Shown here piece after piece: positions 2,855 to 61,858 of a stretch of DNA of 64,000 nucleotides; the stretch's first letter is position 1, and every line of letters begins with the position of its first letter. This DNA is from Natronospira bacteriovora (GTDB lineage: Bacteria > Pseudomonadota > Gammaproteobacteria > Natronospirales > Natronospiraceae): the NCBI RefSeq assembly GCF_030848495.1, contig NZ_JAVDDT010000003.1, positions 124,001 through 188,000 on the forward strand, read 5' to 3'. The notes beneath the pieces were generated by a model that searched no databases, was not told the origin of the DNA, and saw only the letters and a list, made by a program, of their open reading frames with translations. Position numbers and translations under genes: made by a program.

Positions 2855-2955
2855 GGGTTGGTGGGGATGTTCCCGGAAGCGTAATCAACAGGACGTTGAT
2901 TACGCAGCCTACAGGGACGTACTTGCGGCGGTTCCGGGAACATCCCCACCAACCC
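2855..2955. repeat. Long inverted repeat 2 (24-bp perfect arms)
   Basis: The arms 2855-2878 and 2932-2955, beginning GGGTTGGTGG, are perfect reverse complements. The loop contains a nested GCGTAATCAAC/GTTGATTACGC hairpin and a CCTACAGGGACGTACTTGC phrase related to the loop of the neighbouring repeat. The pair is arranged like a two-unit interspersed palindrome. Confidence 0.9.
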
Positions 2956-11088: not shown

Positions 11089-11263
11089 AGTGAACAGTGA
11101 ACAGTTCCCAGTGAACAGTGGGGCCGTGCCAAAACGGGGTGCCTACTGTTTTCTGATGGGTCGTTGCCACAAGGAAGCATGAGGTTGCCAAGGTTTCGCC
11201 GAAGCGGCACGACACCTTCATGGGCACGGCCCGCTGTTCACTGGGAACTGTTCACTGTTCACT
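11089..11263. repeat. Heptad-arm inverted-repeat element, copy A
   Basis: The left arm is built of TGAACAG and TTCCCAG 7-mers (11089-11119). The right arm CTGTTCA/CTGGGAA (11234-11263) is the inverted counterpart. Inside the arms are GGCCGTGCC and its complement GGCACGGCC. The core carries GCCTACTGTTTTCTG and TCGCCGAAGCGGCAC motifs. It sits between dcd and apbC, both on the minus strand; the right arm is nearest the apbC 3' end. Confidence 0.92.
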
Positions 11264-14776: not shown

Positions 14777-14971
14777 AGTTCCCAGTGAGCAGTTCCCAGT
14801 GAACAGTGGGGCCGTGCCCGCGAAGAGACCGTACCGCTTCGACGAGGCCCGCGTAATATCAAGTCTTAATGCGGAAGCGGCCTCTCAGGAAACTGTAGGC
14901 CGTCCGGTTGGCACGGCCCCACTGTTCACTGGGAACTGTTCACTGGGAACTCCCCTCGGGAACTGTTCACT
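14777..14971. repeat. Heptad-arm inverted-repeat element, copy B
   Basis: Begins on the base after the metG stop and ends 18 bases before rsxA. The left arm uses TTCCCAG and TGAACAG units. The right arm is longer, with an extra CTGGGAA unit and a small CCC-CTC-GGG hairpin before a final CTGTTCA unit. The core is in the reverse orientation relative to copy A (CAGGAAACTGTAGGC lies near the right arm). The inner GGCCGTGCC/GGCACGGCC pair is intact. Confidence 0.92.
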
Positions 14972-15575: not shown

Positions 15576-15741
15576 AGTGAACAGTTCCCAGTGAACAGCA
15601 GGCCGTACCCGCGAGTTTGCCGTGCCGCTTCGGCAAGGCTCCGGCAACCCCAAGTTGAAATAAGGCAGCAGCCTACCAGGAAACAGTAGGCAGCTGAGCG
15701 AGCACAGCCTGCTGTTCACTGGGAACTGGGGACTGTTCACT
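15576..15741. repeat. Heptad-arm inverted-repeat element, copy C
   Basis: Fills the rsxA-rsxB gap. The left arm (TGAACAG, TTCCCAG, TGAACAG) begins four bases after the rsxA stop. The right arm has a variant unit CTGGGGA. The core is in the reverse orientation, with TGCCGCTTCGGCAAG near the left arm and CAGGAAACAGTAGGC near the right. Confidence 0.92.
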
Positions 15742-15799: not shown

Positions 15800-16357
15800 A
15801 TGATCGAAGCCGTACTCACATTGTCGGGTCTTGCCGCCGCCTTCGGGCTGGTGCTGGGGTTTGCCTCGGTGTGTTTTCGCACCGAGGGCAATCCCGTGGC
15901 CGATCAGGTGGATGCGCTGCTGCCCCAGACCCAGTGCGGGCAATGCGGCTTTCCCGGCTGCCGGCCCTATGCCGAGGCGATTGCCAGTGGCGAGGCGGAC
16001 ATCAATCAGTGCCCGCCCGGTGGCGAGACCACCATTGCCGCCCTGGCCGACTTGCTGGATCGGGAAGCCAAGCCACTGAATCCCGAGAACGGAGAAGAAG
16101 CGGCCCCCACCGTGGCGGTGATCGACGAGGATGTCTGCATCGGCTGCACAAAATGCATCCAGGCCTGCCCGGTGGACGCCATCCTGGGCGCGGCCAAACA
16201 GATGCACACAGTCATCGAAGAGGAATGCACCGGCTGTGACCTGTGCATCGAACCCTGCCCGGTGGACTGCATTGACATGGTTCCCCGCCGCAAGGGCATC
16301 AGTGACTGGAAACCGCCATTCCCGGATGAAACCCGGGAATGGCGGAGTGAACAGTGA
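15800..16357 (+). CDS. rsxB: Rnf/Rsx complex ferredoxin subunit B
   Basis: Membrane-anchored iron-sulfur subunit of 185 residues. An N-terminal helix (residues 1-25) is followed by the four-Cys Fe-S motif CGQCGFPGC and two ferredoxin-type 4Fe-4S motifs, [12 protein letters not shown] and [12 protein letters not shown], in the last 90 residues. The ATG at 15800 gives the conserved N-terminus MIEAVLTL; the in-frame codons further upstream read into the repeat spacer. The C-terminus is odd: the final residues SEQ and the stop are encoded by the first units of repeat element D, just after a 13-bp inverted repeat in the coding sequence. Confidence 0.96.
16313..16345. repeat. Inverted repeat at the rsxB 3' end abutting copy D
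   Basis: The arms 16313-16325 and 16333-16345 (13 bp, perfect, 7-bp loop) lie wholly inside rsxB. The right arm ends on the base before the first AGTGAACAG of element D. It encodes the [11 protein letters not shown] end of RsxB. Confidence 0.88.
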
Positions 16358-16519
16358 ACAGTTTCCAGTGAACAGCAGGCCGTGCCCACTGAGTTGCCTA
16401 CTGTTTCCTGGTAGGCTGCTGCCTGATTGAGGCTTGGCGTTGCCGGGGCCTTGCCGAAGCGGCACAGCAGAATTTTTGGGCTCGGCCTGCTGTTCACTGG
16501 GAACTGGGAACTGTTCACT
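16346..16519. repeat. Heptad-arm inverted-repeat element, copy D
   Basis: Occupies the rsxB-rsxC gap and encodes the last three RsxB residues and its stop. The left arm is TGAACAG, TGAACAG, TTTCCAG, TGAACAG. The right arm is CTGTTCA, CTGGGAA, CTGGGAA, CTGTTCA. The core is in the forward orientation with GCCTACTGTTTCCTG near the left arm and TTGCCGAAGCGGCAC near the right. Confidence 0.92.
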
Positions 16520-18133: not shown

Positions 18134-19167
18134 TGCGATTTGCCACCGGCCCGGCGCCCCATCTGGCGCCGCAGAATTCAGTCACTACCGTGATGCTGCG
18201 GGTGCTGCTGGCACTGGTACCGGCCCTGCTCGCCTGGGTCTGGTTCTTCGGCTGGGGCATCGTTTTCAATATCCTCATCGCTTCGGCCGTGGCCGTGGCG
18301 GCCGAAGTGCTGATGCTCCATCTGCGCGGCAAACCCATCCAGCGCCACCTGCTGGATCTCAGCGCCATCGTCACCGCGGTACTGCTGGCCTTCTGCCTGC
18401 CGCCCACCACGCCCTGGTGGATCACGGCGACGGGCGCGGGCTTCGCCATCATCTTCGCCAAGCATCTATACGGGGGCCTCGGGCACAACCCCTTCAACCC
18501 GGCCATGGCCGGCTATGTGGTGCTGCTGATTTCCTTTCCGGTGGAAATGACCCAGTGGCTGCCACCCCGGCAACTGGTGGACGATGGACAGTTCCCCGGC
18601 GCCTGGGCACAGCTCGTGGCCATCCTGACCGGAGATCTTCCGGCCGCGGCCACCGTGGACGCCATCAGCCGGGCCACTCCCCTGGATGTGATGAAGACGG
18701 AACTGGGCATGGCGCGCACCGTCGCCGAAATCACCATGGATCCGCGTTTTGGCGACCTGGGCGGCTATGGCTGGGAATGGATCGGCAACGGGGTCATCAT
18801 AGGCGGTCTGTGGCTGATCTACATGCGGGTGATCCGCTGGCAGATTCCGGTGGCGGTGCTGGCCGGCCTGCTGGCACCGGCGACGTTTTTCTATCTGCTG
18901 GACCCGGGCAGTCATGCCTCGCCCGCCTTTCACCTCTTCAGCGGCGCCGCCCTGCTGTGCGCCTTCTTCATCGCGACGGATCCGGTTTCCGCGGCCACCA
19001 CCCGGCTGGGCCGCCTGATCTACGGTGCCGGCATCGGTGTGCTGATCTACGTCATTCGCACCTGGGGCGGGTACCCGGACGCGGTGGCCTTCGCGGTCTT
19101 GCTGATGAACCTGGCCGTGCCGTTGATCGACCGCTATACCAAGCCCAGGGTTTATGGAACGAAGTGA
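18133..19167 (+). CDS. rsxD: Rnf/Rsx complex membrane subunit D
   Basis: Integral membrane flavoprotein of 344 residues related to NqrB, with about nine helices. The segment FNPAMAGYVVLL and the downstream SRATPLD carry the region where Rnf D binds covalent FMN at a Thr (ATPLD resembles the S-x-A-T consensus). Its start overlaps the rsxC stop. The stop codon TGA is the first TGA of repeat element E, so the insertion boundary coincides with the end of the gene. Confidence 0.96.
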   Translation: MRFATGPAPHLAPQNSVTTVMLRVLLALVPALLAWVWFFGWGIVFNILIASAVAVAAEVLMLHLRGKPIQRHLLDLSAIVTAVLLAFCLPPTTPWWITATGAGFAIIFAKHLYGGLGHNPFNPAMAGYVVLLISFPVEMTQWLPPRQLVDDGQFPGAWAQLVAILTGDLPAAATVDAISRATPLDVMKTELGMARTVAEITMDPRFGDLGGYGWEWIGNGVIIGGLWLIYMRVIRWQIPVAVLAGLLAPATFFYLLDPGSHASPAFHLFSGAALLCAFFIATDPVSAATTRLGRLIYGAGIGVLIYVIRTWGGYPDAVAFAVLLMNLAVPLIDRYTKPRVYGTK

Positions 19168-19350
19168 ACAGTTCCCAGTGAACAGCCGGCCGCGCCCAAA
19201 GCAATCTGCCGTGCCGCTTCGGCAAGACCCCGGCAGCACCAAACCTCAATCGGGCAGGGGACTATCAGGAAACAGCAGATAGCTGACTGGGCACGGCCTG
19301 CTGGGAACTGGGAACTGGGAACTGGGAACTGGGAACTGGGAACTGGGAAC
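19163..19350. repeat. Heptad-arm inverted-repeat element, copy E
   Basis: Lies in the rsxD-rsxG gap and supplies the rsxD stop codon. The left arm is standard. The right arm is unusual: seven uninterrupted CTGGGAA units (19301-19349) replace the mixed CTGTTCA/CTGGGAA pattern, which suggests unit-level expansion. The core is in the reverse orientation. Confidence 0.92.
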
Positions 19351-19389: not shown

Positions 19390-20064
19390 ATGGACACACA
19401 GAAATCCAAACTGCTCCGCTCCATGGCCATCAGCGCCGGGCTGCTGGCGGCGTTTGCCGTGGTGGGCGGGGGTCTGGTGGCCCTGACCGAACAGCTGACC
19501 CGGGAGCGTATCGTGGAGAACGAACGCCGGGCGCGGCTGGCGAGCCTGCAGGAAATCCTGCCGGCGGATGCCTATGACAATGACCTGGTGGCCGATACCG
19601 TCGAGCTGGAGAAGGTGAGTGGGCTCAATGTGGCCGCTCCCGTCGTCATCCATCGGGCCTACCTGGACGGTCAAGCCGTTGCTGCAATATTTCCGCTTGT
19701 CGCTCCGGACGGTTATGGCGGGCCCATCCATCTTCTGATGGGCGTGCATGTGGATGGTCGGCTGGCCGGCGTACGCGTCACCCGACACGCGGAAACCCCG
19801 GGCCTGGGCGATCCCATTGAAACCCGTCGCTCGGACTGGATTCACGGCTTTGAAGGCCGAAGGCTGGGTGAGGATCCGGACCGAAAATGGCAGGTCAGAG
19901 CCGATGGCGGCCAGTTCGACCAGTTCACCGGTGCGACCATCACGCCGCGCGCGGTGGTCCGGGCCGTGCATCGGGGTTTGGTATACTTCGACGAGAATCG
20001 GAGCCTGATTTTCCCTGAAGATCCCGAGGAAGGAGGACAGTTCCCAGTGAACAGTTCCCAGTGA
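19390..20064 (+). CDS. rsxG: Rnf/Rsx complex FMN-bearing subunit G
   Basis: Membrane-anchored periplasmic flavoprotein of 224 residues. One N-terminal helix (residues 13-33) is followed by the periplasmic domain. The flavinylation motif appears as TGATITPRAV near residue 181, whose final Thr accepts FMN covalently. The C-terminus is extended by about eight residues (QFPVNSSQ) encoded by heptad units of repeat element F; E. coli RsxG (206 residues) has no such tail. Only a weak ribosome site precedes the start. Confidence 0.95.
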   Translation: MDTQKSKLLRSMAISAGLLAAFAVVGGGLVALTEQLTRERIVENERRARLASLQEILPADAYDNDLVADTVELEKVSGLNVAAPVVIHRAYLDGQAVAAIFPLVAPDGYGGPIHLLMGVHVDGRLAGVRVTRHAETPGLGDPIETRRSDWIHGFEGRRLGEDPDRKWQVRADGGQFDQFTGATITPRAVVRAVHRGLVYFDENRSLIFPEDPEEGGQFPVNSSQ

Positions 20065-20211
20065 ACAGCGGGCCGTGCCAACGAGCCGTCTTCTGTTTCC
20101 AGATAGGCTTTTACCGTATCCTGCCATAAAGTGGTCGAGGCTTCGCCGAAGCTGCATGGCAGATCCCCGGGCACGGTCCCACTGTTCACTGGGAACTGTT
20201 CACTGTTCACT
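20037..20211. repeat. Heptad-arm inverted-repeat element, copy F
   Basis: Fills the rsxG-rsxE gap. The left arm overlaps the rsxG 3' end and encodes its last residues and stop. The right arm ends five bases before the rsxE ATG. The core is in the forward orientation with a degenerate TCTTCTGTTTCC motif and TTCGCCGAAGCTGCA. Confidence 0.92.
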
Positions 20212-20885: not shown

Positions 20886-21529
20886 ACCGGGACAAGCGCG
20901 TGGCGATATTCGAACGCCTGCGAGCCGCCAACCCAGCCCCGACCACCGAACTCAACTACAGCAGCCCCTTTGAACTGCTGGTTGCAGTGCTGCTTTCGGC
21001 CCAGGCGACGGATGTGGGTGTCAACAAGGCCACGGCCCGGCTGTTTCCGGTGGCCAACAGGCCGGAGACCATTCTGGCGCTGGGCGAGGACGGGCTGAAG
21101 GAGTACATCAAGACCATTGGCCTGTTCAACAGCAAGGCGGCCAATCTGATCAAGACCTGCCGCATCCTGCTGGAAGAGCACGGCGGCGAGGTCCCACGGG
21201 ACCGCGCCTCGCTCGAGGCCCTGCCCGGCGTGGGCCGAAAAACAGCCAACGTGATACTCAACACGGCCTTCGGCCAGCCCACCATCGCCGTGGACACTCA
21301 CATCTTCCGCGTCTCCAACCGCACGCGCCTGGCACCAGGCAAGACGGTTCTGGCCGTGGAAGAGAAGCTGCTGAAGGTGACGCCCGATGAATTCAAGCAG
21401 GACGCCCACCATTGGCTGATCCTGCACGGCCGCTATGTCTGCAAGGCACGCAAGCCCGACTGCTTTCATTGCCCGATTGCAGACCTGTGTGAATGGCCGG
21501 AGAAACCCACCATGAGAAGTGAACAGTGA
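20882..21529 (+). CDS. nth: Endonuclease III
   Basis: Base-excision repair glycosylase/AP lyase of 215 residues that removes oxidised pyrimidines. The helix-hairpin-helix [11 protein letters not shown] carries the catalytic Lys, and [11 protein letters not shown] carries the catalytic Asp. The C-terminal 4Fe-4S loop has the C-x6-C-x2-C-x5-C spacing ([17 protein letters not shown]). It is coupled to rsxE, and rsx-nth linkage is standard in gammaproteobacteria. The final residues SEQ and the stop come from repeat element G. Confidence 0.97.
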
Positions 21530-21678
21530 GCAGTTCCCAGTGAACAGCGGGCCGTACCCGCCGAACTGCCTACTGCTCCCTGATAGAGCGCTGCCCAATT
21601 GAGGCTTGGCGTTATCGGGTCCTTGCCTGAGCGGCACGGCAATTTCGTGGGCACAGCCCCACTGGGAACTGGGAACTG
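21518..21678. repeat. Heptad-arm inverted-repeat element, copy G
   Basis: Begins inside the 3' end of nth and ends five bases before the DUF1841 start codon. The right arm is short (two CTGGGAA units, no CTGTTCA). The core is in the forward orientation with GCCTACTGCTCCCTG and TTGCCTGAGCGGCAC. Confidence 0.9.
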
Positions 21679-43153: not shown

Positions 43154-43561
43154 CGGGATCCTCCGGTTTGATCGCAAGACACTGACTGAAAAGGCTTTTC
43201 AGCCAGTGAGGATTTTTTTCGAGCCCCCAATTATAGCCGCCCTGCCCCTTCATAAGCGAATCGCCCTTCTCCGGGCAGCAACGGCAAATTCAAACGAATA
43301 CGTGGCAAGGGCGTTCGTCCTGCTATAATTCGCGCTCCCGAAACCAGGCGGTCGACCCCGATGGGGCCGGCCACACGCAAAAACAGCGGCCCCCGGGCCG
43401 CGTCCGACAGGCCTTTCCGCCCCCCGCAATGACGCGGTGGTGCGGCGCAACCCCAGCCGCCGGAATGACCAGTCCGCCAGCGTCGCGCGCGACCCTGGCC
43501 GCTGGTCACGAACAGTGGCCGGGCAGGCCGAACCGGTTTATTTCCGTCTCAGGAGGACAAT
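43154..43561. other. Divergent icmF/leucine dehydrogenase regulatory region
   Basis: This region of 408 bases has no gene. It carries a TATAAT box at 43325-43330 pointing toward leucine dehydrogenase, a GC-rich 230-base stretch downstream of it, and the AGGAGG ribosome site at 43550. No repeat element of the heptad family is present. Confidence 0.5.
43300..43331 (+). promoter_or_regulatory. Candidate promoter with perfect -10 box
   Basis: TATAAT at 43325-43330 lies in an otherwise GC-rich region 230 bases upstream of leucine dehydrogenase. The -35 side is weak (around GTGGCA, 43303-43308), so activator dependence is possible. Confidence 0.45.
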
Positions 43562-44665
43562 ATGGAGCTTTTCGCCACCGCAGAACAGATGGGTCATGAG
43601 CAGGTCGTGTTCTTCCATCACAAGGAGAGCGGCCTCAAAGCCATCGTGGCGATCCACAACACCGTACTCGGCCCCGCCCTCGGCGGCCTGCGGATGTGGC
43701 CCTATGAGAGCGAAGACGAGGCACTGACCGACGTGTTGCGCCTGTCCCGCGGCATGACCTACAAGGCGGCCGTGTCCGGCCTGAACCTGGGTGGCGGCAA
43801 ATCCGTCATCATCGGCGACCCCAAGAAGGACAAGAGCGAGGCCTTCTTCCGCGCGCTGGGCAAGTTCATCGACTCCCTGGGCGGGCGCTACATCACCGCC
43901 GAGGATGTGAACACCACCGTCAACGACATGGAATACATCTTTGCCGAGACCGACAACGTGGTGGGCGTGCCCGAAGTGCATGGCGGTGGCGGTGACCCCT
44001 CCCCGCTCACGGCCTACGGCACCATTCGCGGCATCCAGGCCTGCCTGAACCGCAAGTACGGCCACACGGACCTGTCCAAGGCCAGCTACGCTGTTCAGGG
44101 CGCCGGCAATGTGGGCATCCACATCATCCGCACCCTGCGTGAGGCCGGTGCCAAGGTCACCGTCTGCGACATGAACGAAAAGCGCCTCGAGGAATGCCGC
44201 GAGATGGGCTGCGAGATCGTGGATCTGGACGCCATCTATGACGTGGACTGCGATGTCTACGTGCCCTGTGCCCTGGGCGCCACGGTCAACGACGACACCA
44301 TTCCGCGCCTCAAGTGCGACATCGTGGCCGGTTCCGCCAACAACCAGCTGGCCGAGGAACGCCACGGTACCGAACTGGAAAAGCGCGGCATGATCTACGC
44401 CCCGGACTACGCCATCAACGCCGGTGGCCTGATGAACGTGGCCATTGAGCTGCAGGGCTATAACAAGGATCGGGCCTACCGCCAGGTCAAGGGCATCTAC
44501 GACATCATCGAGAAGATCTTCGAGATTGCCGACCGGGACAGCATCCCCAGCTGGCAGGCCGCGGATCGCCTGGCCGAAGAACGCATTGAAGCCATGAGCC
44601 ACGTCAAGCTGCCGCACGTGGAGCAGCGCTCCAAGCGCGCCTCCGGCCGTCGGCCGAAGGCCTGA
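43562..44665 (+). CDS. Leucine dehydrogenase
   Basis: NAD-dependent oxidative deaminase of 367 residues that converts Leu, Ile and Val to their 2-oxo acids. The Glu/Leu/Phe/Val dehydrogenase pattern is clear: Lys68 in MTYKAA and catalytic Lys80 in LNLGGGK, at the same positions as in bacillar leucine dehydrogenase. The Rossmann motif is VQGAGNVG. A near-ideal AGGAGG ribosome site stands seven bases before the ATG. It heads the liu gene series and feeds it with branched-chain 2-oxo acids, while icmF is divergent. Confidence 0.94.
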   Translation: MELFATAEQMGHEQVVFFHHKESGLKAIVAIHNTVLGPALGGLRMWPYESEDEALTDVLRLSRGMTYKAAVSGLNLGGGKSVIIGDPKKDKSEAFFRALGKFIDSLGGRYITAEDVNTTVNDMEYIFAETDNVVGVPEVHGGGGDPSPLTAYGTIRGIQACLNRKYGHTDLSKASYAVQGAGNVGIHIIRTLREAGAKVTVCDMNEKRLEECREMGCEIVDLDAIYDVDCDVYVPCALGATVNDDTIPRLKCDIVAGSANNQLAEERHGTELEKRGMIYAPDYAINAGGLMNVAIELQGYNKDRAYRQVKGIYDIIEKIFEIADRDSIPSWQAADRLAEERIEAMSHVKLPHVEQRSKRASGRRPKA

Positions 44666-44732
44666 GGGCCACACCGGAGACTTCGGCAGGCAGATCGACA
44701 GGGATGTGGTCTGCCGGTTTCGATATTGCTTG

Positions 44733-44912
44733 AGTGAACAGTGAACAGCTGGCCGCGCCAGCCGAGAAGCCTACTGTTTCCGGATAGACAGTACGCGTGC
44801 TGAATGGTCACTGCGGGAGCGACGGACGCCGCTGCCACGGAAGAACCGCTACACGCTCACTGTTCACTGGGAACTGGGAACTGTTCACTTCCCTTCTAGG
44901 GAACTGTTCACT
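44733..44912. repeat. Heptad-arm inverted-repeat element, copy H
   Basis: Fills the leucine dehydrogenase-liuA gap. The left arm is short (TGAACAG twice, no TTCCCAG). The right arm has an extra CTGTTCA after a TTCCCT-TCT-AGGGAA hairpin. The forward core has GCCTACTGTTTCC, and a GTGCTGAATGGTCACTGCGG block shared with copies J and K. Confidence 0.9.
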
Positions 44913-44932
44913 GAATTCATGGGGAGACCCCA

Positions 44933-46099
44933 ATGACCGTCATCAACACCCACATCAACGAAGAACTGGACATGCTGCGCGAGTCGGTGGAGCGCTTTGC
45001 CCAGAGTGAGATTGCGCCTATCGCCGCCGAGGTGGACGAGAAGAACGAATTTCCCCAGGCAATGTGGCAGAAGCTGGGGGAGATGGGCCTGCTGGGCATG
45101 ACCGTATCGGAAGAATACGGCGGCTCGGACATGGGCTATCTGGCGCACCTGGTCTGCATGGAAGAGATTTCCCGGGCCTCCGGTTCCATCGGCCTGTCCT
45201 ACGGCGCCCACTCCAACCTCTGCGTCAACAACATTTTCCTCAACGGCACGGAAGCACAGAAGCAGAAATACCTGCCCAAGCTTTGCTCCGGCGAGTGGGT
45301 GGGTGCCCTGGCCATGTCCGAGCCGGGTGCCGGTTCCGACGTGGTCGGCTCCATGAGCTGCCGGGCCGAGAAGAAGGGTGATGTCTGGGTCGCCAACGGC
45401 AACAAGATGTGGATCACCAACGGCCCCGAGGCCGATGTGCTGATCGTCTACATGCGCACCGCCAACAAGGACCTGGGCTCCAAGACCGTCACCGCCTTTC
45501 TGATCGAGAAAGGCATGAAGGGATTCCGCACCGCCCAGAAGCTGGACAAGCTCGGCATGCGTGGCTCCAACACCTGCGAACTGGTGTTCGAAGACTGCGA
45601 GATTCCCGAAGAGAACATTCTGGGTACGGTCAACGAGGGGGTTTACATCCTCATGCGCGGCCTGGACTCGGAGCGCCTGGTGCTGTCCGGCGGCCCCATT
45701 GGCCTGATGCAGGCCGGCATGGATGTTGTGCTGCCCTACATGCACGAGCGCAAGCAGTTCGGCAAGTCCATCGGCGCCTTCGGCATCATGCAGGCCAAGG
45801 TCGCCGACATGTACACCGCCCTGCAATCCTCCCGCGCCTTCGCCTACCGGGTGGCCGAGGCCTTCGACCGGGGCGAGCAGGTGCGCTGGGATGCCGCCGC
45901 CTGTCTGATGTACTGCTCCGAATCCGCCGTCAAGGTGGCACTGGAAAGCATCCAGGCCCTGGGCGGCAATGGCTACATCAATGAATACCCCACCGGCCGC
46001 ATCCTGCGGGATGCCAAGCTGTACGACATCGGCGCCGGAACCAATGAGATTCGGCGGATGCTTATCGGCCGCGAGCTGTTCAATGCGATGAGTCCTTGA
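44933..46099 (+). CDS. liuA: Isovaleryl-CoA dehydrogenase
   Basis: FAD enzyme of 388 residues that oxidises isovaleryl-CoA to 3-methylcrotonyl-CoA in leucine breakdown. The acyl-CoA dehydrogenase fold is clear (EPGAGSDV and [11 protein letters not shown]). The catalytic base is placed as in isovaleryl-CoA dehydrogenases: Glu247 in [10 protein letters not shown], with Gly/Ala at the usual C-terminal position ([11 protein letters not shown]). That distinguishes it from short- and medium-chain enzymes. A GGGGAGA site precedes the ATG. It is followed by the heptad element that contains the four-helix-bundle gene. Confidence 0.95.
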
Positions 46100-46116
46100 A
46101 TTTAGGCGCCGATGCG

Positions 46117-46632
46117 AGTGAACAGTGAACAGTTCCCAGTGAACAGCTGGCCGTGCTAACTCATAGGCCGAGCTGCTTCGGATAGCTTGAGAAGGACAGG
46201 CAGAGAAGAGGATGCAAGGATGCGGTTTGAGGATCTGGAGGTCTGGAAACGATCAGCTCGACTGAGTGCTGAATTATATAAGGCACTGCGGGAGCTGAAG
46301 GATTTTGCATTCCGCGACCAGATCACCCGCTCTGCCTTGTCGATATCGAGCAACATCGCTGAAGGCTGGGAAAGAAACAGCAAACGGGAGTTTTCACAGT
46401 ATTTGAAGTATGCGCTGGGTTCATGCGGCGAGCTTCGAACCCAGTTATACATCGGCATTGAAGCTGAATACCTGAATAGAGAACAGGGTCAGGTCTGGAT
46501 CAGGGAAACACGCGAGTTGAGCGCAATGCTGCGATCGCTCCAAACCTCCACGATTGCCGAAGAGCCTGGCAGCACGTACGAAGCCTGACGGTTTTCTGTT
46601 CACTGGGAACTGGGAACTGGGAACTGTTCACT
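46117..46632. mobile_element. Heptad-arm element enclosing a four-helix-bundle gene (copy I)
   Basis: The left arm 46117-46149 (TGAACAG, TGAACAG, TTCCCAG, TGAACAG) leads to CTGGCCGTGC and a GCTGCTTCGG motif seen in the short copies. The right arm 46596-46632 has CTGTTCA, three CTGGGAA units and CTGTTCA. Between them is a complete 122-codon gene instead of the usual noncoding core. It is the only copy with coding content and so is a candidate for the full-length form; mobility is inferred. Confidence 0.7.
46220..46588 (+). CDS. Four-helix-bundle protein (S23/Avd-like, IVS family)
   Basis: Helical protein of 122 residues with the family signature: FEDLEVWKRSARLSAELY at the start, then DQITRSALSISSNIAEG and FSQYLKYALGSCGELRTQL. 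Relatives are encoded in intervening sequences of 23S rRNA genes, and others act as accessory (Avd) proteins of diversity-generating retroelements. Their biochemical role is mostly unknown. The codons are visibly more AT-rich than in the neighbouring liu genes, a sign of transfer. The ATG at 46220 follows AAGAGG. Its stop lies eight bases before the right arm of the element. Confidence 0.88.
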   Translation: MRFEDLEVWKRSARLSAELYKALRELKDFAFRDQITRSALSISSNIAEGWERNSKREFSQYLKYALGSCGELRTQLYIGIEAEYLNREQGQVWIRETRELSAMLRSLQTSTIAEEPGSTYEA

Positions 46633-46682
46633 AAAAGTTTTCTAGAGAAACCGAATTCCAGAATCACCTGAGGAGGCCAAAC

Positions 46683-47867
46683 ATGCCCACCACCGATCCC
46701 ATCGTCATCGTCGCGGCGCGCCGCACCCCCATCGGCTCTTTCCAGGGCAGCCTTTCCGGCGCCCAGGCCCCGCAGTTGGGTTCGGCCGCCATCAAGGCCG
46801 CCATGGAAGACGCCAAGCTGGGTAGCACGGACGTCAGCGAAGTCATCTTCGGCTGTGTGCTGCCGGCCGGTCTCGGCCAGGCGCCGGCCCGTCAGGCCTC
46901 CCTGGGTGCCGGAATCGACAAGGGCGCCGGCTGCACCACCATCAACAAGGTCTGCGGCTCAGGCATGAAGGCCGTGATGATGGGCCATGACCTGATCGCC
47001 GCCGGCTCCGCCGAGGTGATCGTGGCCGGTGGCATGGAATCCATGACCAACGCCCCCTATCTGCTGCCCAAGGCCCGCGGCGGCATGCGCATGGGTCATC
47101 AGGAAGTCATCGATCACATGTTCTTCGATGGCCTGCAGAACCCCTATGACGGGCAGATGATGGGCGGCTTCGGCGAGACCTGCGCCGACAAATACGGTTT
47201 CAGTCGCGAAGCCCAGGACGAGTTCGCCATCGAATCCGTGAAGCTGGCCCAGACCGCGGTCGAAAAGGGTTACTTCAAGGACGAAATCACCCCGGTCACC
47301 ATCAAGGGCCGCAAGGGCGAAACCGTGGTGGACACCGACGAAGAGCCCGGCAAGTGCAATGTGGACAAGATCCCCACCATGCGCGCGGCCTTCAAGAAAG
47401 ACGGCACGGTTACCGCCGCCACCTCCTCCTCCATTTCCGATGGCGCCTCGGCGCTGGTGATGATGCGGGCCTCGGAAGCCGAGAAGCGCGGCCTTGAGCC
47501 GCTCGGCCGCATTGTCGGTCACGCCGGCCACGCCCAGGAGCCGGAATGGTTCACCACCGCGCCGGTGGGTGCCATCCAGTCCCTGCAGAAACAACTCGGC
47601 TGGTCAGTGGATGATGTGGACCTGTATGAGGTCAACGAGGCCTTTGCCGTGGTCGCCATGGCCGCCATGCACGATGTGGGCATCCCGCGGGAGAAGCTGA
47701 ACATCAATGGCGGTGCCTGTGCCCTGGGTCACCCCATTGGTGCCACCGGTGCCCGCATCATCACTACCCTGCTGCACAGTCTCAAGCGCAACGGCGGCAA
47801 GCGCGGCATCGCCTCCCTGTGCATTGGTGGCGGTGAAGCGACGGCCATCGCTGTAGAGCGGCTGTAA
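46683..47867 (+). CDS. Acetyl-CoA C-acyltransferase (thiolase)
   Basis: Thiolase of 394 residues that cleaves or forms acetoacetyl-CoA or 2-methylacetoacetyl-CoA. The nucleophile is Cys91 in NKVCGSGM; GHPIGATGAR carries the His, and the late CIGGGEAT carries the second Cys. The length is that of the homotetrameric degradative or biosynthetic class. Its place in the liu series suggests the last step of leucine (acetoacetyl-CoA) and isoleucine breakdown. AGGAGG precedes the ATG. The stop codon lies in a 16-bp perfect inverted duplication that abuts element J. Confidence 0.94.
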   Translation: MPTTDPIVIVAARRTPIGSFQGSLSGAQAPQLGSAAIKAAMEDAKLGSTDVSEVIFGCVLPAGLGQAPARQASLGAGIDKGAGCTTINKVCGSGMKAVMMGHDLIAAGSAEVIVAGGMESMTNAPYLLPKARGGMRMGHQEVIDHMFFDGLQNPYDGQMMGGFGETCADKYGFSREAQDEFAIESVKLAQTAVEKGYFKDEITPVTIKGRKGETVVDTDEEPGKCNVDKIPTMRAAFKKDGTVTAATSSSISDGASALVMMRASEAEKRGLEPLGRIVGHAGHAQEPEWFTTAPVGAIQSLQKQLGWSVDDVDLYEVNEAFAVVAMAAMHDVGIPREKLNINGGACALGHPIGATGARIITTLLHSLKRNGGKRGIASLCIGGGEATAIAVERL

Positions 47868-47882
47868 GCCGCTCTACAGCGA
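47848..47882. repeat. Inverted duplication of the thiolase 3' end abutting copy J
   Basis: The arms 47848-47863 and 47867-47882 (16 bp, perfect, 3-bp loop) begin TCGCTGTAGAG. The left arm encodes the C-terminus and the stop sits at the loop. The right arm ends on the base before the element's first AGTGAACAG. Confidence 0.92.
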
Positions 47883-48205
47883 AGTGAACAGTGAACAGAT
47901 GAAAGTGAACAGCTGGCCCTGCCAAGCGAGAGGCCTACTGTTTCCTGACAGGCAGTCGCCATGCTGAATGGCAACTGCGGGGTGCTAGTTGTGGGAGCGG
48001 CATTCGCGCTTGAGCGGCTGTAAGCTTCTCAAGCGCGAGTGAACAGTGAACAGATGAAAGTGAACAGCTGCTCCGGGGAAGACTACAGGCTCACCATTTT
48101 CAGAGCTTCAGTACAGTCCGAAATCCTGAATTGAGGCTAAAGCCTCTCCCGCAGGCACCAAGCTCAAAGGGTTTGCTGTTCACTGGGAACTGGGAACTGT
48201 TCACT
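47883..48205. repeat. Heptad-arm element, composite copy J
   Basis: Composite of 323 bp in the thiolase-liuB gap. It has two successive left arms (47883-47914 and 48039-48070), each with the variant unit ATGAAAG, but only one right arm (48175-48205). The first core shares the GCTGAATGGCAACTGCGG block with copy K. The second core contains half of a REP palindrome (GGCTAAAGCCTCTCCCGCA). Confidence 0.88.
48004..48038. repeat. Hairpin abutting the second left arm of copy J
   Basis: The arms 48004-48014 and 48028-48038 (11 bp, TCGCGCTTGAG) end where the second TGAACAG run starts. The loop contains GCGGCTGTAAGC, identical to the thiolase-end hairpin loop region at 47859-47870. This suggests that hairpin and arm were duplicated together. 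Confidence 0.8.
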
Positions 48206-48250
48206 TAATCCGTGGACCTGCTTAATCTGCACGAAACAAGAGGATTAGGG

Positions 48251-49861
48251 ATGCCCGTCCTAAAGACGACAATAGACCGCTCTGACGCAACCTTCCAGGC
48301 CAACGCCGAACACATGGAAGGGCTGGTGGCGGATCTCAAGGATCAGCTGAGCCGGGCCGCCCAGGGCGGCGGTGAGCGTGCGCGCAAGAAGCACACCGAC
48401 CGGGGCAAGCTGCTGCCACGGGAACGCATCGAAGCCCTGCTGGACAGTGGCAGCGCCTTCCTCGAGTTCTCGCCCCTGGCCGCCCACGGCATGTACGACG
48501 ATGCCGCGCCCGCCGCCGGCATGATCACCGGCATTGGCCGGGTGCGTGGCCGGGAGGTGGTGATCGTGGCCAATGACGCCACGGTCAAGGGCGGCACCTA
48601 CTACCCCATGACGGTGAAGAAGCACCTGCGGGCCCAGGAAATCGCCCGCGAGAACCGCCTGCCCTGCATCTATCTGGTGGATTCCGGCGGGGCCTTCCTG
48701 CCCCTGCAGGACGAGGTCTTCCCCGACAAGGAACACTTCGGGCGCATCTTCTACAACCAGGCCCAGATGTCCGCCGAGGGCATTCCCCAGATCGCCGTGG
48801 TGATGGGCTCCTGCACCGCCGGCGGCGCTTATGTGCCGGCCATGTCGGATGAAGCCATCATCGTCAGGGAACAGGGCACCATCTTCCTCGGTGGCCCGCC
48901 CCTGGTGAAGGCCGCCACCGGCGAGGAAGTGGACGCCGAGTCCCTTGGCGGCGGCGAGGTACATACCCGCATTTCCGGGGTGGCCGACCACCTGGCGGAA
49001 GACGACGCCCATGCCCTGTCCATCTGCCGTGACATCGTTGCCAGCCTCAATAGTCGCAAGTATGTGGACCTGGATCTGGCCGAACCGGTGGAGCCGATCT
49101 ACCCGGCCGAGGACCTCTACGGCATCACCCCGAAGGAAACCCGTCACCCGGTGGATGTTCGCGAGATCATTGCCCGCATCGTCGACGGTTCCGAAATGCA
49201 CGAATTCAAGGCCCTGTTCGGCAAGACCCTGGTGACCGGCTTTGCCCGCATCCACGGCTATCCGGTGGGCATCATTGCCAACAACGGCATCCTGTTTTCC
49301 GAATCGGCCCAGAAGGGCGCGCACTTCATTCAGCTCTGTGAGCAGCGTGGCATTCCACTGGTGTTCCTGCAGAACATCACCGGCTTCATGGTGGGCAAGA
49401 AGTACGAGAACGCCGGTATCGCCAAGGACGGGTCCAAGATGGTCAACGCCGTGGCCACCGCCAGCGTGCCCAAGTTCACCGTGGTCATCGGCGGCTCCTT
49501 CGGGGCCGGCAACTACGCCATGTGCGGCCGCGCCTATGGTGCCCGCATGATGTGGATGTGGCCCAATTCGCGGATTTCGGTCATGGGCGGCGAACAGGCC
49601 GCCTCGGTGCTGGCCACCGTCCGACGCGACGGCCTGGAAGCTCGCGGCAAGGAATGGCCCGAAGCCGAGGAAGAGCAATTCAAGAATGCCATCCGCGAAC
49701 AGTACGAAGACCAGGGCCATCCCTACTACGCCACCGCGCGTCTGTGGGATGACGGCATCATCGACCCCATGGATACACGACGCGTTCTCGGCATGGCGAT
49801 CTCGGCGGCCCTGAATGCGCCGATTGATGAACCGAACGGGTTTGGTGTGTTCCGGATGTAA
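48251..49861 (+). CDS. liuB: Methylcrotonyl-CoA carboxylase carboxyltransferase (beta) subunit
   Basis: Transfers the carboxyl group from biotin to 3-methylcrotonyl-CoA in leucine degradation; 536 residues. The two crotonase-like carboxyltransferase halves are visible: [14 protein letters not shown] and [17 protein letters not shown] in the first, and [18 protein letters not shown] with [16 protein letters not shown] in the second. The ATG at 48251 is preceded by GAGGA; the in-frame codons upstream lie in the repeat spacer. It works with LiuD, encoded two genes downstream. Confidence 0.95.
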
Positions 49862-49868
49862 GACAGGA

Positions 49869-50097
49869 AGTGAACAGTGAACAGTTCCCAGTGAACAGTT
49901 GGCCGTGCCAAGCGAGAGGCCTACTGTTTCCTGATGGGCAGTCGTCATGCTGAATGGCAACTGCGGGGGCGCTAGTTGTGGGAGCGGCATTCCTGCCGCG
50001 ACAGGAGACATATCGAAGCCCCAGTCGCGGCAGGAATGCCGCTCCCACCAGAAAAGGCACGGCCCCACTGTTCACTGGGAACTGGGAACTGTTCACT
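49869..50097. repeat. Heptad-arm inverted-repeat element, copy K
   Basis: Fills the liuB-liuC gap. The arms are standard and the inner GGCCGTGCC/GGCACGGCC pair is present. The forward core has GCCTACTGTTTCCTG and the GCTGAATGGCAACTGCGG block, and is interrupted by a 71-bp REP palindrome (next entry). Confidence 0.92.
49978..50048. repeat. REP-like palindrome nested in copy K
   Basis: The arms 49978-50002 and 50024-50048 (25 bp, perfect) begin GTGGGAGCGGCATTC. This matches the GTGGGAGCGGC-type REP family common in pseudomonads and related bacteria. It sits inside the heptad element, so it is the younger insertion. Confidence 0.92.
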
Positions 50098-50120
50098 CAA
50101 CAACCCCCGGGGGAAGAACA

Positions 50121-50915
50121 ATGTCTGATCAAGTTCAAGTCAAGATCGACGCCCTTGGCGTTGCAACAGTGGCCTTGAACCGTCCCGAGAAGCACAACGC
50201 CTTCAACCAGGATGTGATCAAGGAACTGACGGCCACCTTCTCGAAGCTGAACAACGATGACTCGGTTCGCGTGGTGGTGCTGACCGGCGAGGGCAAGTCC
50301 TTTTCCGCCGGGGCGGATCTCAACTGGATGCGCTCCATGGCGGAGTACAGCGAAGACGAGAACCTGGAAGACTCCCTGCGCCTGGCCGAGCTGATGTGGA
50401 CCCTGGACGGCCTGCAGAAGCCCACCGTGGCCCGCATCAATGGCTCGGTCTTTGGCGGTGGCGTGGGACTGGTGGCCTGCTGTGACATCGCGGTGTCCGT
50501 GGCCGAGGCGAAATTTGCCCTGACCGAGGTGCGCCTGGGCCTGGTGCCCGCCGTCATCTCCCCCTTCGTGATCCGCGCCATCGGCACCCGCCAGGCACGG
50601 CGCTTCTTCATGACCGGCGAGGCCATGGACGCCGAGCTGGCCGAGCGCATCGGTCTGGTGCATGAGTGCGTGGCCGCCGACCAGCTGGACGTAGCCGTGG
50701 ACAAGCATGTCAAGCGTCTGCTCAAGGGCGGCCCCAATGCCCTGCGCGCCAGCAAGGAGCTGATCGACAGCATCCACGGCCAGGGCATCTCCGCGCGGGA
50801 AGCCGCCAAGATGAAAACCTCGCGCCTGATTGCCCAGCTGCGGGTGTCGCGGGAAGGCCAGGAAGGCCTGTCGGCGTTTCTGGAGAAGCGGGCACCGAAT
50901 TGGGTTGAGAAGTGA
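50121..50915 (+). CDS. liuC: 3-Methylglutaconyl-CoA hydratase (enoyl-CoA hydratase family)
   Basis: Crotonase-fold enzyme of 264 residues that would hydrate 3-methylglutaconyl-CoA to HMG-CoA. The motifs SFSAGADLNWM and NGSVFGGGVGLVACCDIAV form the oxyanion hole, and FALTEVRLGLVPAVISPFV follows. The ATG at 50121 follows GGGGAAG; the longer frame reads through copy K. The function is assigned from position among liuB, liuD and liuE. The stop TGA is the first TGA of element L. Confidence 0.92.
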   Translation: MSDQVQVKIDALGVATVALNRPEKHNAFNQDVIKELTATFSKLNNDDSVRVVVLTGEGKSFSAGADLNWMRSMAEYSEDENLEDSLRLAELMWTLDGLQKPTVARINGSVFGGGVGLVACCDIAVSVAEAKFALTEVRLGLVPAVISPFVIRAIGTRQARRFFMTGEAMDAELAERIGLVHECVAADQLDVAVDKHVKRLLKGGPNALRASKELIDSIHGQGISAREAAKMKTSRLIAQLRVSREGQEGLSAFLEKRAPNWVEK

Positions 50916-51139
50916 ACAGTGAACAGTGAACAGTTCCCAGTGAACAGTCGGCCGTGCCTGCCGAAAGGCCTACTGTTGCCTGATAGGCAGTTGCCATGCT
51001 GCTCGCAATCTTAAGCAAATAACAGTGGGAGCGGCATTCCTGCCGCGACAGGAGGCATATCGAAGCCCTGATCGCGGCAGAAATGCCGCTCCCACAGAAG
51101 AACAGCGCCCCACCCACTGTTCACTGGGAACTGTTCACT
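50911..51139. repeat. Heptad-arm inverted-repeat element, copy L
   Basis: Fills the liuC-liuD gap. The left arm starts with three TGAACAG units in a row, which puts a TGA in all three frames; one is the liuC stop. The forward core has GCCTACTGTTGCC and a nested REP palindrome. Confidence 0.92.
51025..51095. repeat. REP-like palindrome nested in copy L
   Basis: The arms 51025-51049 and 51071-51095 begin GTGGGAGCGGCATTC and pair with a few mismatches. It is a sister of the palindrome in copy K; the loop phrase GGCATATCGAAGCCC is also shared. Confidence 0.88.
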
Positions 51140-51199
51140 TAATATCTTTACAAAGCCGGGGCAGCGAATACCGGCCCAATGACCTGAGGAAGGAAAACC

Positions 51200-53188
51200 A
51201 TGTTCCGGAAAGTCCTCATAGCCAACCGCGGTGAAATCGCCTGCCGTGTCATGGATACCTGCCATGCCCTGGGCATCCGCACCGTGGCGGTCTACTCCGA
51301 CGCCGATGCCGGCGCCCGTCATGTGCGCCTGGCGGACGAGGCCGTGCACATCGGCCCGGCGGCCGCGGCCGAATCCTACCTCAATGCCGAACGCATTCTT
51401 GAGGTGGCGAAGGAAACGGGCGCCGAGGCGGTACACCCCGGTTATGGCTTCCTGTCCGAGAACACCGACTTTGCCCGGGCCTGTGACAAGGCCGGCATTG
51501 TGTTCATTGGCCCCAAGCCGGACAGCATCGACAAGATGGGCTCCAAGTCGGCCTCCAAGCGCATCATGGAAGCGGCCGGTGTGCCGGTGGTGCCGGGCTA
51601 CCACGGCGATGACCAGAGTAACGAGACCCTGATCAGCGAGGCGAAGAAGATCGGCTTTCCGCTCATGATCAAGGCCGTCTCCGGTGGCGGCGGCAAGGGC
51701 ATGCGCGTGGTGCATGAGGAAAAGGAACTGCAGGCCGCATTGGATGGCGCCCGCCGCGAGGGCAAATCCAGCTTCGGCGATGACCGGGTCTTGCTGGAGA
51801 AATTCATCGAGCAGCCACGGCATATCGAGTTCCAGGTCTTCGGCGACAGCCACGGCAATGTCATCCACCTCTTCGAGCGGGAATGTTCCCTGCAGCGCCG
51901 CTACCAGAAGATCGTGGAAGAGACCCCCTCCCCGGCTCTCGACGATAGTCTGCGGGCGAAGATGGGCGAAGCGGCCGTTAACGCCGCGAAGGCCGTGGAC
52001 TACATCAATGCCGGCACGGTGGAGTTCATCATGGGGGCCGACGGCGGCTTCTATTTCATGGAAATGAACACCCGCCTGCAGGTGGAGCATCCGGTCACCG
52101 AAATGACCACTGGCCTGGACCTGGTGGAATGGCAGCTGCGGGTGGCCGCCGGCAAGCCACTGCCCATGGAACAGGATGAGGTGGAACAGTTCGGTCACTC
52201 CTTCGAGGTGCGCCTTTATGCCGAGAAGGTCGCCGATGGCTTCCTCCCTGCCACCGGTGTGATTCGGGGTTTCGACTGCCCCGAGGACGAGGACGGTGTG
52301 CGCCTGGACTCCGGCGTGGAGGCCGGTGATGAGATCAGCATTCACTACGATCCCATGGTGGCCAAGCTGATCGTCTTCGATGAGGACCGGGAACAGTCCC
52401 TGCGCCGTCTGCGTGAAACCCTGGCACGCACCGCTGTGTTCGGTCTGGAAACCAATCTTTCCCTGCTGCGGGCCATCGCCGCCGACGAGCGCTTCGCCGC
52501 CGGCGACATGGACACCGGCATGGTGGATGAGCGCCTGGCCGACTGGACCACGATCCCCTCTCCCTCCACTGGCGTCCTGGCCGCGGCTGCAGTGTATCGC
52601 CAGATGGAGCTTGAGCTCGACAACGAAGACGAAGAAGACCCCACCTCCCCCTGGGCCCAGCCGGATGGCTGGCGTGTCTCGGGCGACGGCGGCCTGCGGG
52701 TGCGCGTTGCCACCGCCGGCGAGGAACAGGATGTCTGGCTGCAGAGTGTGGGCCCCGAGCAGTGGGCCCTGAGCCTTGGCGAGGACTCCCTGGCGGTGGA
52801 GCTGGTGGAAGTGGAACCGGAGGCCTTGGTGCTGGCCATCGACGGTCATGTGAAGCGCTTCGAGGTGCTGGCCGACGAGCAGGATCTGCAGATCACCGAG
52901 GCCGGCCTGACCCATGTCCTGAAACGAATCGACCCCTACGCCGCCGCCGGTGGTGCTGCTGCCGATGAAGCCCACCCCGGCAGCCCCATGCCCGGCCGCA
53001 TTGTCGCCGTGCACGTGAAGGAAGGCGACCGGGTGGAAGCCGGCGACCCCATCCTGGTGCTGGAAGGCATGAAGATGGAATTCACCGTCAAGGCCGGCGT
53101 ATCCGGCACGGTGGAAAAGTTGAAATACGGCGAAGGCGACATGGTCGAAGCCGAAGTCCCGCTGGTGGACATTCAGCCGGAGGGCTGA
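51200..53188 (+). CDS. liuD: Methylcrotonyl-CoA carboxylase biotin (alpha) subunit
   Basis: Biotin carboxylase and carrier subunit of 662 residues. It has the N-terminal biotin carboxylase domain (ANRGEIACRV, ATP-grasp loop GGGGKGMRVV, and MEMNTRLQVEHPVTE). The middle BT-type linker leads to a C-terminal biotinyl domain with the biotin Lys625 in EGMKM. A GAGGAAGGAAAA site precedes the ATG. It partners LiuB. The last codons PLVDIQPEG form one arm of a perfect 21-bp inverted repeat that runs to the border of element M. Confidence 0.96.
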   Translation: MFRKVLIANRGEIACRVMDTCHALGIRTVAVYSDADAGARHVRLADEAVHIGPAAAAESYLNAERILEVAKETGAEAVHPGYGFLSENTDFARACDKAGIVFIGPKPDSIDKMGSKSASKRIMEAAGVPVVPGYHGDDQSNETLISEAKKIGFPLMIKAVSGGGGKGMRVVHEEKELQAALDGARREGKSSFGDDRVLLEKFIEQPRHIEFQVFGDSHGNVIHLFERECSLQRRYQKIVEETPSPALDDSLRAKMGEAAVNAAKAVDYINAGTVEFIMGADGGFYFMEMNTRLQVEHPVTEMTTGLDLVEWQLRVAAGKPLPMEQDEVEQFGHSFEVRLYAEKVADGFLPATGVIRGFDCPEDEDGVRLDSGVEAGDEISIHYDPMVAKLIVFDEDREQSLRRLRETLARTAVFGLETNLSLLRAIAADERFAAGDMDTGMVDERLADWTTIPSPSTGVLAAAAVYRQMELELDNEDEEDPTSPWAQPDGWRVSGDGGLRVRVATAGEEQDVWLQSVGPEQWALSLGEDSLAVELVEVEPEALVLAIDGHVKRFEVLADEQDLQITEAGLTHVLKRIDPYAAAGGAAADEAHPGSPMPGRIVAVHVKEGDRVEAGDPILVLEGMKMEFTVKAGVSGTVEKLKYGEGDMVEAEVPLVDIQPEG

Positions 53189-53203
53189 ATGTCCACCAGC
53201 GGG
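53158..53203. repeat. Perfect 21-bp inverted duplication of the liuD 3' end abutting copy M
   Basis: The arms 53158-53178 and 53183-53203 are exact reverse complements around a 4-bp loop (GGAG). The left arm is coding; the stop TGA lies in the right arm. The right arm ends on the base before the element's AGTGAACAG. No T-run follows. Confidence 0.95.
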
Positions 53204-53390
53204 AGTGAACAGTGAACAGTTCCCAGTGAACAGATGAAAGTGAACAGCGGGCCCTGCCCTAAGAGACACTGTGCCGCTTCGGCGAGATACATGTGCACTC
53301 AAGATTCCATTTGGCAACGGCCTGGCAGAAAACAGTTGGCCGTTCCATTGGCACGGCCCACTGTTCACTGGGAACTGGGAACTGTTCACT
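53204..53390. repeat. Heptad-arm inverted-repeat element, copy M
   Basis: Fills the liuD-liuE gap. The left arm includes the variant unit ATGAAAG as in copy J. The core is in the reverse orientation with TGCCGCTTCGGC near the left and CAGAAAACAGTTGGC near the right; GGCACGGCCC precedes the right arm. Confidence 0.92.
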
Positions 53391-53435
53391 CAGAAAGCTT
53401 CCCGTAAGGCACCTGAACACAACGCGAGCACCCAA

Positions 53436-54362: not shown

Positions 54363-54410
54363 AAACATGGGAACCGACGAACACACCGAATACATGCAAT
54401 AAAAATGATC

Positions 54411-54596
54411 TCGCGCAGAGACGCAAAGACGCAGAGAAGGCAATGCATTTTGGGCGACTGAAGCGGCCGTTGTGGGAGAGGCATTAGCCTCGATATCTGC
54501 TATCTGATAACACAGTCGGGGCTAAAGCCTCTCCCGCAGCAGGTTTGCGCTGGCCCGTAATCCATCTTTCTCTGCGTCTTTGCGTCTCTGCGCGAG
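54411..54596. repeat. Inverted-repeat element with CTCTGCGT-type arms
   Basis: The arms 54411-54438 and 54569-54596 (28 bp, perfect) begin CTCGCGCAGAGACGC and consist of near-tandem short units. It lies in the liuE-dehydrogenase gap and has the same plan as the heptad elements but another sequence. A REP palindrome is nested in its core. Confidence 0.93.
54473..54539. repeat. REP-like palindrome nested in the CTCTGCGT-arm element
   Basis: The arms 54473-54494 (GTGGGAGAGGCATTAGCC) and 54517-54539 pair imperfectly. It is related to the GTGGGAGCGGC palindromes of copies K and L, and its right half resembles the half-palindrome in copy J. Confidence 0.82.
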
Positions 54597-61682: not shown

Positions 61683-61858
61683 AGTTCCCAGTGAGCAGTT
61701 CCCAGTGAACAGTGGTGCCGTGCGGACGGAGATGCCGTGCCGCTTTGGCGAAGCCGAAGTAGGCACCAGATGCTCTGTGGCAACGGGACATCAGGAAACT
61801 GTAGGCTAGGCGATCGGCACTGCCCCGCTGTTCACTGGGAACTGTTCACTGGGAACTT
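61683..61858. repeat. Heptad-arm inverted-repeat element, copy N
   Basis: Fills the pilC-pilD gap, starting three bases after the pilC stop and ending four bases before the pilD ATG. The reverse-oriented core has TGCCGCTTTGGCG near the left arm and CAGGAAACTGTAGGC near the right. It shows that the family is not confined to the Rnf and liu operons. Confidence 0.92.

What the first reader, a model, noticed from the sequence alone, without database searches (positions are those of the whole stretch)
46117..46632. A four-helix-bundle gene sits between the arms of one element
Copy I has both heptad arms and the GGCCGTGC and GCTGCTTCGG parts of the core. The rest is replaced by a 122-codon S23/Avd-like gene of visibly lower GC. 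S23 proteins are known from 23S rRNA intervening sequences and Avd from retroelements, both linked to RNA or cDNA processes. The short copies may be coding-deleted derivatives of this form, much as MITEs relate to transposons.
Basis: partly seen in the sequence, partly recalled or inferred. Interest (0 to 1): 0.75.

Follow-up and report, generated by a model that had tools for sequence, protein, structure and literature searches.

The report
S23 gene inside heptad-armed mobile element
A small 122-residue four-helix protein gene sits between two mirror-image arms built of 7-base repeats, and the same arrangement surrounds most relatives of this gene across bacteria, with clean insertion sites that show it is a tiny, widespread and apparently unrecognised mobile element.

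Summary
Window 46118-46632 is a 515-bp unit: heptad arms GTGAACA/GTTCCCA, two pieces of the local short-element core, and a 122-aa S23 (PF05635/TIGR02436) gene of lower GC. The pattern is general. Inverted tandem-heptad arms score above threshold at 55/80 S23 loci from many phyla, 19/29 S23 genes in an independent Pseudomonadota sample and 12/13 plasmid copies, against 0/30 ParE genes (Fisher 1.4e-8). The best period is 7 in 89 of 98 positives. The heptad differs between families but matches within each element, and tracks the protein clade. A 23S rRNA intervening sequence found here carries such arms too. Near-identical cyanobacterial plasmids with and without the element show exact 423- and 413-bp insertions with 5-bp target duplications; other sites show 4, 3 or 0 bp. 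At one 81-genome site the gene is under purifying selection (dN/dS 0.07), and arm-retaining deletion derivatives exist. However, the window's short elements hold no S23 remnants and also occur in sister genomes without S23. Best reading: a minimal foldback-type mobile element whose only gene is S23; the integrating enzyme is unknown.

The parts
46118..46146 (.). Left arm: four heptads GTGAACA GTGAACA GTTCCCA GTGAACA (CAGT + 3 variable bases)
   Evidence: pairs with 46597-46632
46149..46156 (+). GGCCGTGC, left end of the core shared with short elements
   Evidence: 24 in window, 7.1 expected; at the same place after the arm in sibling elements
46172..46181 (+). GCTGCTTCGG, internal core piece
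   Evidence: similar offset in siblings (GCCGCTTCGG)
46220..46588 (+). S23 / four-helix-bundle protein gene, 122 aa
   Evidence: AF2 model pLDDT 92.5, fold of 2gsc/2rld and Avd
46597..46632 (.). Right arm: TGTTCAC TGGGAAC TGGGAAC TGGGAAC TGTTCAC T (inverted copy of the left arm)
11090..11263 (.). gene-less element with the same arms
14777..14971 (.). gene-less element with the same arms
15577..15741 (.). gene-less element with the same arms
16347..16519 (.). gene-less element with the same arms
19164..19350 (.). gene-less element with the same arms (right arm expanded to about seven TGGGAAC-type units; end approximate)
20039..20211 (.). gene-less element with the same arms
21519..21678 (.). 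gene-less element with the same arms
44734..44912 (.). gene-less element with the same arms
   Evidence: a different element occupies this spacer in G001 and G002
47884..48205 (.). gene-less element with the same arms (an internal third arm array)
49870..50097 (.). gene-less element with the same arms
50912..51139 (.). gene-less element, orthologous copy in G001
53205..53390 (.). gene-less element; same-arm element at the same site in G001
61683..61858 (.). gene-less element with the same arms

Best explanation
The unit at 46118-46632 is one member of a widespread class of very small mobile elements (about 410-570 bp). Their ends are inverted arms of tandem heptads and their only gene is S23. 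SHOWN: the arms belong to the element and end where it ends. It is present or absent as a block between near-identical flanks, and it is found at different sites. Insertions lie between ORFs without breaking them, and in one case inside 23S rRNA. The S23 protein is under purifying selection at the site tested. The arms of one element match each other while the heptad differs from family to family. INFERRED: (1) at the DNA level the arms are the terminal inverted repeats recognised for integration, with a staggered cut that can leave about 5-bp duplications. (2) At the RNA level they pair into a long stem that RNase III can cut. That would excise the S23 message from operon mRNA or pre-rRNA and make insertion in an operon tolerable. 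(3) The S23 ring (homopentamer in XCC0516) binds the repeats and helps mobility, as Avd does for its reverse transcriptase. (4) Gene-less short elements are non-autonomous partners or descendants that spread with the same arms. (5) The arms stay matched by slippage plus copying of one arm from the other through the foldback. The enzyme that joins DNA is not identified.
For: S23 against controls: 55/80, 19/29 and 12/13 against 0/30 ParE genes and no outer flank of the Pseudomonadota sample. Exact insertions: site A (L379 against L387/L388, 6 mismatches in 640 bp of flank) is 423 bp with TSD GTAAT; site C (L383 against L391) is 413 bp with TSD TTCTA. The two elements are about 78% identical and their homology stops at the arms. 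Random 5-bp agreement is 0.0019. 81-genome site: 45 empty, 19 with full S23 elements, 4 deletion derivatives, 9 gene-less arm-like inserts, 3 other. dN/dS median 0.074. Arms vary with protein clade. In the home genome three of four S23 genes have paired arms, each of a different repeat that is also multi-copy elsewhere in that genome. A 23S rRNA insert with S23 and heptad arms: L099. Coxiella IVS: heptads upstream of S23, terminal stem, RNase III excision (PMC4990558). RNA fold z = -5.6 with the arms paired.
Against: TSD is clean at only two of five exact or near-exact sites; L268 has 4 bp, L266 at most 3 bp, and L273 none with about 15 bp of target lost. At the 81-genome site inheritance is mostly vertical (5 changes against 19 for shuffled labels), so movement is infrequent there. 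28% of S23 loci lack arms above threshold. G002 and G003 carry armed short elements without any S23 gene. No transposase is encoded. Neither binding of S23 to heptads nor its oligomeric state was tested here.
Confidence: 0.66

Rival explanations
1. The element is a passenger mobilised in trans. A resident transposase, reverse transcriptase or other host recombinase recognises the foldback arms, and S23 has another job such as RNA chaperone, arm binding or copy control.
For: No enzyme lies within 413-515 bp. Short gene-less elements are multi-copy in G002/G003 without S23. TSD size varies. Arm sequence drifts quickly between clades.
Against: S23 recurs between such arms and is kept under purifying selection. 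No candidate partner gene is known, and Y1_Tnp is absent from G108 and G210, which carry the element.
Confidence: 0.45
2. The arms are ordinary intergenic heptad arrays made by replication slippage, and S23 genes merely happen to lie in such spacers.
For: Heptad arrays without S23 are common in some genomes (PMC4679880). Unit number varies in steps of one unit.
Against: Control genes have no such arms (0/30). Arms appear and disappear together with the gene in exact insertions. Both arms are the same repeat in inverted orientation, including a joint 7-to-8 change in G314. Elements at different sites are homologous only up to the arm ends.
Confidence: 0.05
3. It is a host-useful RNA-processing cassette in operons: the arms are RNase III sites that separate cistrons and S23 regulates this. 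Mobility is incidental.
For: Most annotated plasmid copies lie between co-directional genes. Long vertical retention at one site. Strong RNA fold. RNase III cutting is shown for the Coxiella IVS.
Against: Insertion sites share no function. Empty relatives are common. The gene decays into deletion derivatives and pseudogenes.
Confidence: 0.2
4. The short elements are REPIN-like and are moved by a Y1 (RAYT-type) transposase; S23 was captured by one of them.
For: G000, G001 and G002 each have one or two Y1_Tnp matches. REP-like palindromes occupy the same spacers in G001 and G002.
Against: G003 has armed elements and no Y1_Tnp match; G108 and G210 have S23 elements and no Y1_Tnp match. HUH insertion makes no TSD (general knowledge), whereas 4-5 bp duplications are seen.
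Confidence: 0.08

Closest known systems
23S rRNA intervening sequences (IVS) with S23 ORF, e.g. Coxiella burnetii (PMC4990558)
   Same: S23 gene, terminal inverted stem, tandem heptads (GACAGAT) upstream of the ORF, size about 430 bp, selfish behaviour; L099 here is such an IVS with heptad arms
   Different: The window element and most others lie in intercistronic DNA, not rRNA. The general heptad-arm rule, exact insertions with TSD and the gene-less families were not found in that paper
TAACTGA-type heptamer repeats of Beggiatoaceae, Cyanobacteria and Bacteroidetes (PMC4679880); STRR heptamers of heterocystous cyanobacteria (from memory)
   Same: Intergenic tandem heptads, a scattered phylogenetic range suggesting horizontal spread; several S23 arms here contain TCAGTTA, the reverse complement of TAACTGA (L036, L037, L093)
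   Different: There they are described as direct repeats with a proposed regulatory role; the terms S23 and four helix do not occur in that paper
Foldback and Galileo-type transposons (from memory)
   Same: Long terminal inverted repeats built of short tandem units; arms expand, contract and homogenise
   Different: Eukaryotic, much larger, different coding content
MITEs and REPIN/RAYT
   Same: Many short gene-less relatives of a rarer gene-bearing form
   Different: The gene is S23, not a transposase; arms are heptad arrays
Avd of diversity-generating retroelements (4dwl, 8ub7)
   Same: Same fold (TM 0.75)
   Different: Below the Avd family cut-off; immediate neighbours are acyl-CoA dehydrogenase and thiolase ORFs, not a reverse transcriptase

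Membership tests
S23 / 23S_rRNA_IVP (PF05635, TIGR02436) | profile score over curated cut-off and four-helix fold | tested here: met
   111.2 against 33.8 bits; 103.9 against 24; model matches 2gsc, TM 0.83
23S rRNA IVS | located within a 23S rRNA gene | tested here: not met
   no rRNA in the window by Rfam; flanks are acyl-CoA dehydrogenase and thiolase ORFs. Met for the relative L099
Avd / DGR | Avd profile cut-off | tested here: not met
   15.7 bits against cut-off 80
Avd / DGR | linked reverse transcriptase with template and variable repeats | not tested
   only the immediate neighbours were seen; no search for a reverse transcriptase was made
Insertion sequence / DNA transposon | terminal inverted repeats that move with the element | tested here: met
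   arms at the ends of exact insertions
Insertion sequence / DNA transposon | fixed-length target site duplication | tested here: inconclusive
   5, 5, 4, 3 and 0 bp at five sites
Insertion sequence / DNA transposon | encodes a transposase | tested here: not met
   only an S23 ORF in 413-515 bp
MITE-like derivative relation | gene-less copies are internal deletions of the gene-bearing form | tested here: inconclusive
   seen at the 81-genome site (G360, G354, G372); no S23 remnants in the window's short copies
REPIN/RAYT | dependence on a Y1 transposase | tested here: not met
   no Y1_Tnp match in G003, G108 and G210; genomic co-occurrence only, function not testable

The most novel reading that the evidence does not exclude
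S23 is itself the mobility protein. A ring of a 120-residue four-helix protein recognises heptad foldback arms and drives insertion, making these 410-570 bp units the smallest autonomous mobile elements known. They would be the common source of rRNA intervening sequences and of the unexplained heptamer repeats (STRR, TAACTGA) of many bacteria.
Probability: 0.2. Interest if true: 0.95.

Novelty: new variant of a known kind. Interest (0 to 1): 0.8.

Why it matters
S23 proteins have had no known role since their description in rRNA intervening sequences, and heptamer repeats in cyanobacteria, Beggiatoaceae and other bacteria have had no accepted origin. Linking the two as gene and ends of one mobile element gives both a testable explanation. 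It also supplies exact empty/filled pairs for bench work, and adds a very small element with foldback arms that keep their two copies matched while changing sequence between lineages.

Tried and rejected
First arm-versus-protein correlation used wrong-strand translations for 17 loci; it was redone correctly and became stronger. The idea that the upstream arm is G-rich relative to the gene was dropped: an inverted repeat reads the same on both strands, so the 92% G-skew says only that the arms read inward are G-rich. A strict 4 constant + 3 variable heptad rule holds for the window family but only weakly in general (63% of loci above expectation). Slippage-only origin was rejected because of the exact insertions. 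Literature searches for heptad repeats plus S23 gave only the Coxiella IVS paper. The library holds open-licence PubMed Central papers only, so a subscription paper or preprint could be missed. STRR sequences are from memory and were not matched to S23 arms here. TAACTGA was matched only by eye to arms containing TCAGTTA.

Full report
1. What is there. Window 46118-46632 holds a left arm of four heptads, a right arm of five inverted heptads plus a T, and between them two short core pieces and a 122-codon gene at 46220-46588. The protein is PF05635 (3.5e-32) and TIGR02436, with sequence relatives 2gsc and 2rld in the PDB. An AlphaFold2 model (pLDDT 92.5) matches 2gsc at TM 0.83 and Avd 4dwl at 0.75. 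Gene GC is 52% against 62% for the window, and the arm score of 34 exceeds all 500 shuffles (maximum 29). About 13 gene-less elements with the same arms lie in the window; a search of the home genome with this copy finds 93 matches, nearly all to its arms.

2. The arrangement is general. The home genome has four S23 genes. Three have paired arms, each with a different unit: GTGAACA/GTTCCCA, GAGTTCT/GAGTGCT and the hexad CGTTGT. Each unit recurs in many gene-less arrays in that genome, often nested. Among 80 S23 loci from many phyla, 55 have inverted arms scoring at least 30; in the first test 56 of 84 loci exceeded every outer-flank control. In an independent sample of 249 Pseudomonadota genomes, 43 have S23 over the cut-off and 19 of 29 loci have arms. 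ParE toxin genes from the same sample gave 0 of 30 (Fisher 1.4e-8), and 12 of 13 plasmid copies were positive. Of 98 positives, the best period is 7 in 89, 8 in 7 and 6 in 2. Arm similarity falls with protein distance: Mantel r -0.35, 0 of 2000 permutations, still -0.14 at distances of 0.4 or more. Shared ancestry of hosts contributes to this, so it shows co-inheritance rather than recognition.

3. It inserts as a block. On cyanobacterial plasmids, Trichormus plasmid C (L379) and its near-identical relatives differ by a 423-bp S23 element: the left flank differs at 6 of 640 positions and GTAAT is duplicated. A Nostoc plasmid (L383) has a 413-bp relative, about 78% identical, at a different site with TTCTA duplicated; empty relatives are L390-L392. 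Homology between the two stops at the arm ends. Random 5-bp agreement is 0.0019. Three further sites are less clean: L268 has 4 bp (GCCT), L266 at most ATG plus about 38 bp outside the arm, and L273 no duplication with about 15 bp of target lost.

4. Decay series at one site. In one genus the spacer between an acyl-CoA dehydrogenase gene and the next ORF is contiguous (empty) in 45 of 81 genomes. Of the rest, 19 hold a full S23 element (about 420-570 bp), 4 hold internal-deletion derivatives, 9 hold gene-less arm-like inserts and 3 hold another palindrome (one genome unresolved). In G360 the deletion joins the S23 start to the S23 end between arms that remain on both sides. In G314 both arms consist of octads instead of heptads, so the two arms changed together. 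A tree of the flanks needs 5 changes for S23-or-derived against a shuffled mean of 19, so the element here is mostly inherited. dN/dS among the S23 genes is 0.074 (147 pairs).

5. The window's own short elements. At 46117 the sister genomes G001 and G002 have the same gene order without the S23 element; instead they carry REP-like palindromes, and CAAGCTN-heptad elements lie in neighbouring G002 spacers. G002 and G003 have short elements of the window's arm type but no S23 by Pfam or by a family profile at E up to 1. No S23 remnant was found in short elements of the window (best E 0.015) or in related loci. They may have arisen independently of S23, or by full replacement of the interior.

6. 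Link to rRNA intervening sequences. L099 is an S23 gene with two in-frame stops inside a 23S rRNA gene, with arms built of AGAAGACAG-type heptads. The Coxiella IVS paper reports tandem heptads (GACAGAT) upstream of its S23 ORF, a terminal stem, RNase III excision, and notes the S23 homopentamer of Xanthomonas (PMC4990558). The window element as RNA folds with its arms paired, z = -5.6.

7. Mechanism. Shown: block insertion, arms as ends, matched arms, purifying selection, deletion derivatives. Inferred: the arms serve both as DNA ends and as an RNA stem that can be cut out of operon transcripts; S23 binds the repeats; the DNA-joining enzyme is unknown. A Y1 transposase does not seem to be required, since no match is found in some genomes with the element.

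8. Novelty. Each part was known separately: S23 in IVS, heptamer repeats in several phyla (PMC4679880), foldback arms and MITEs. I found no paper that joins them, within the limits of an open-access library.

Noticed in passing
L095, L096, L098, L148 against L147, L150: In one genus the spacer before ahcY holds an S23 element, of two different S23 clades with two different heptads (GTGCTGC or GTGAGGG), whereas genomes without it (one of that genus, one of a neighbouring genus) have an SAH riboswitch there (Rfam RF01057).
   Followed up: partly
L203 1-901 (home genome): Nested armed elements: GAGTGCT arms enclose CGTAATC hexad arms, which enclose GTGAGGC heptad arms.
   Followed up: no
window 43500-54500 against L151, L152, L153: The same intercistronic spacers are occupied by different repeat families in three genomes of one genus (GTGAACA heptads, REP-like GTAGGAGCG palindromes, CAAGCTN heptads).
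   Followed up: partly
L270, L272, L380: S23 elements sit inside CRISPR-cas operons of cyanobacterial plasmids (cas6-cas4 twice, cmr2-cmr3 once).
   Followed up: no
L365 (G314): Arm unit length changed from 7 to 8 bases in both arms of one element, pointing to copying between the arms.
   Followed up: no
window 2868-2943: An unrelated inverted pair (GGGATGTTCCCGGAA ... TTCCGGGAACATCCC) with no heptads.
   Followed up: no
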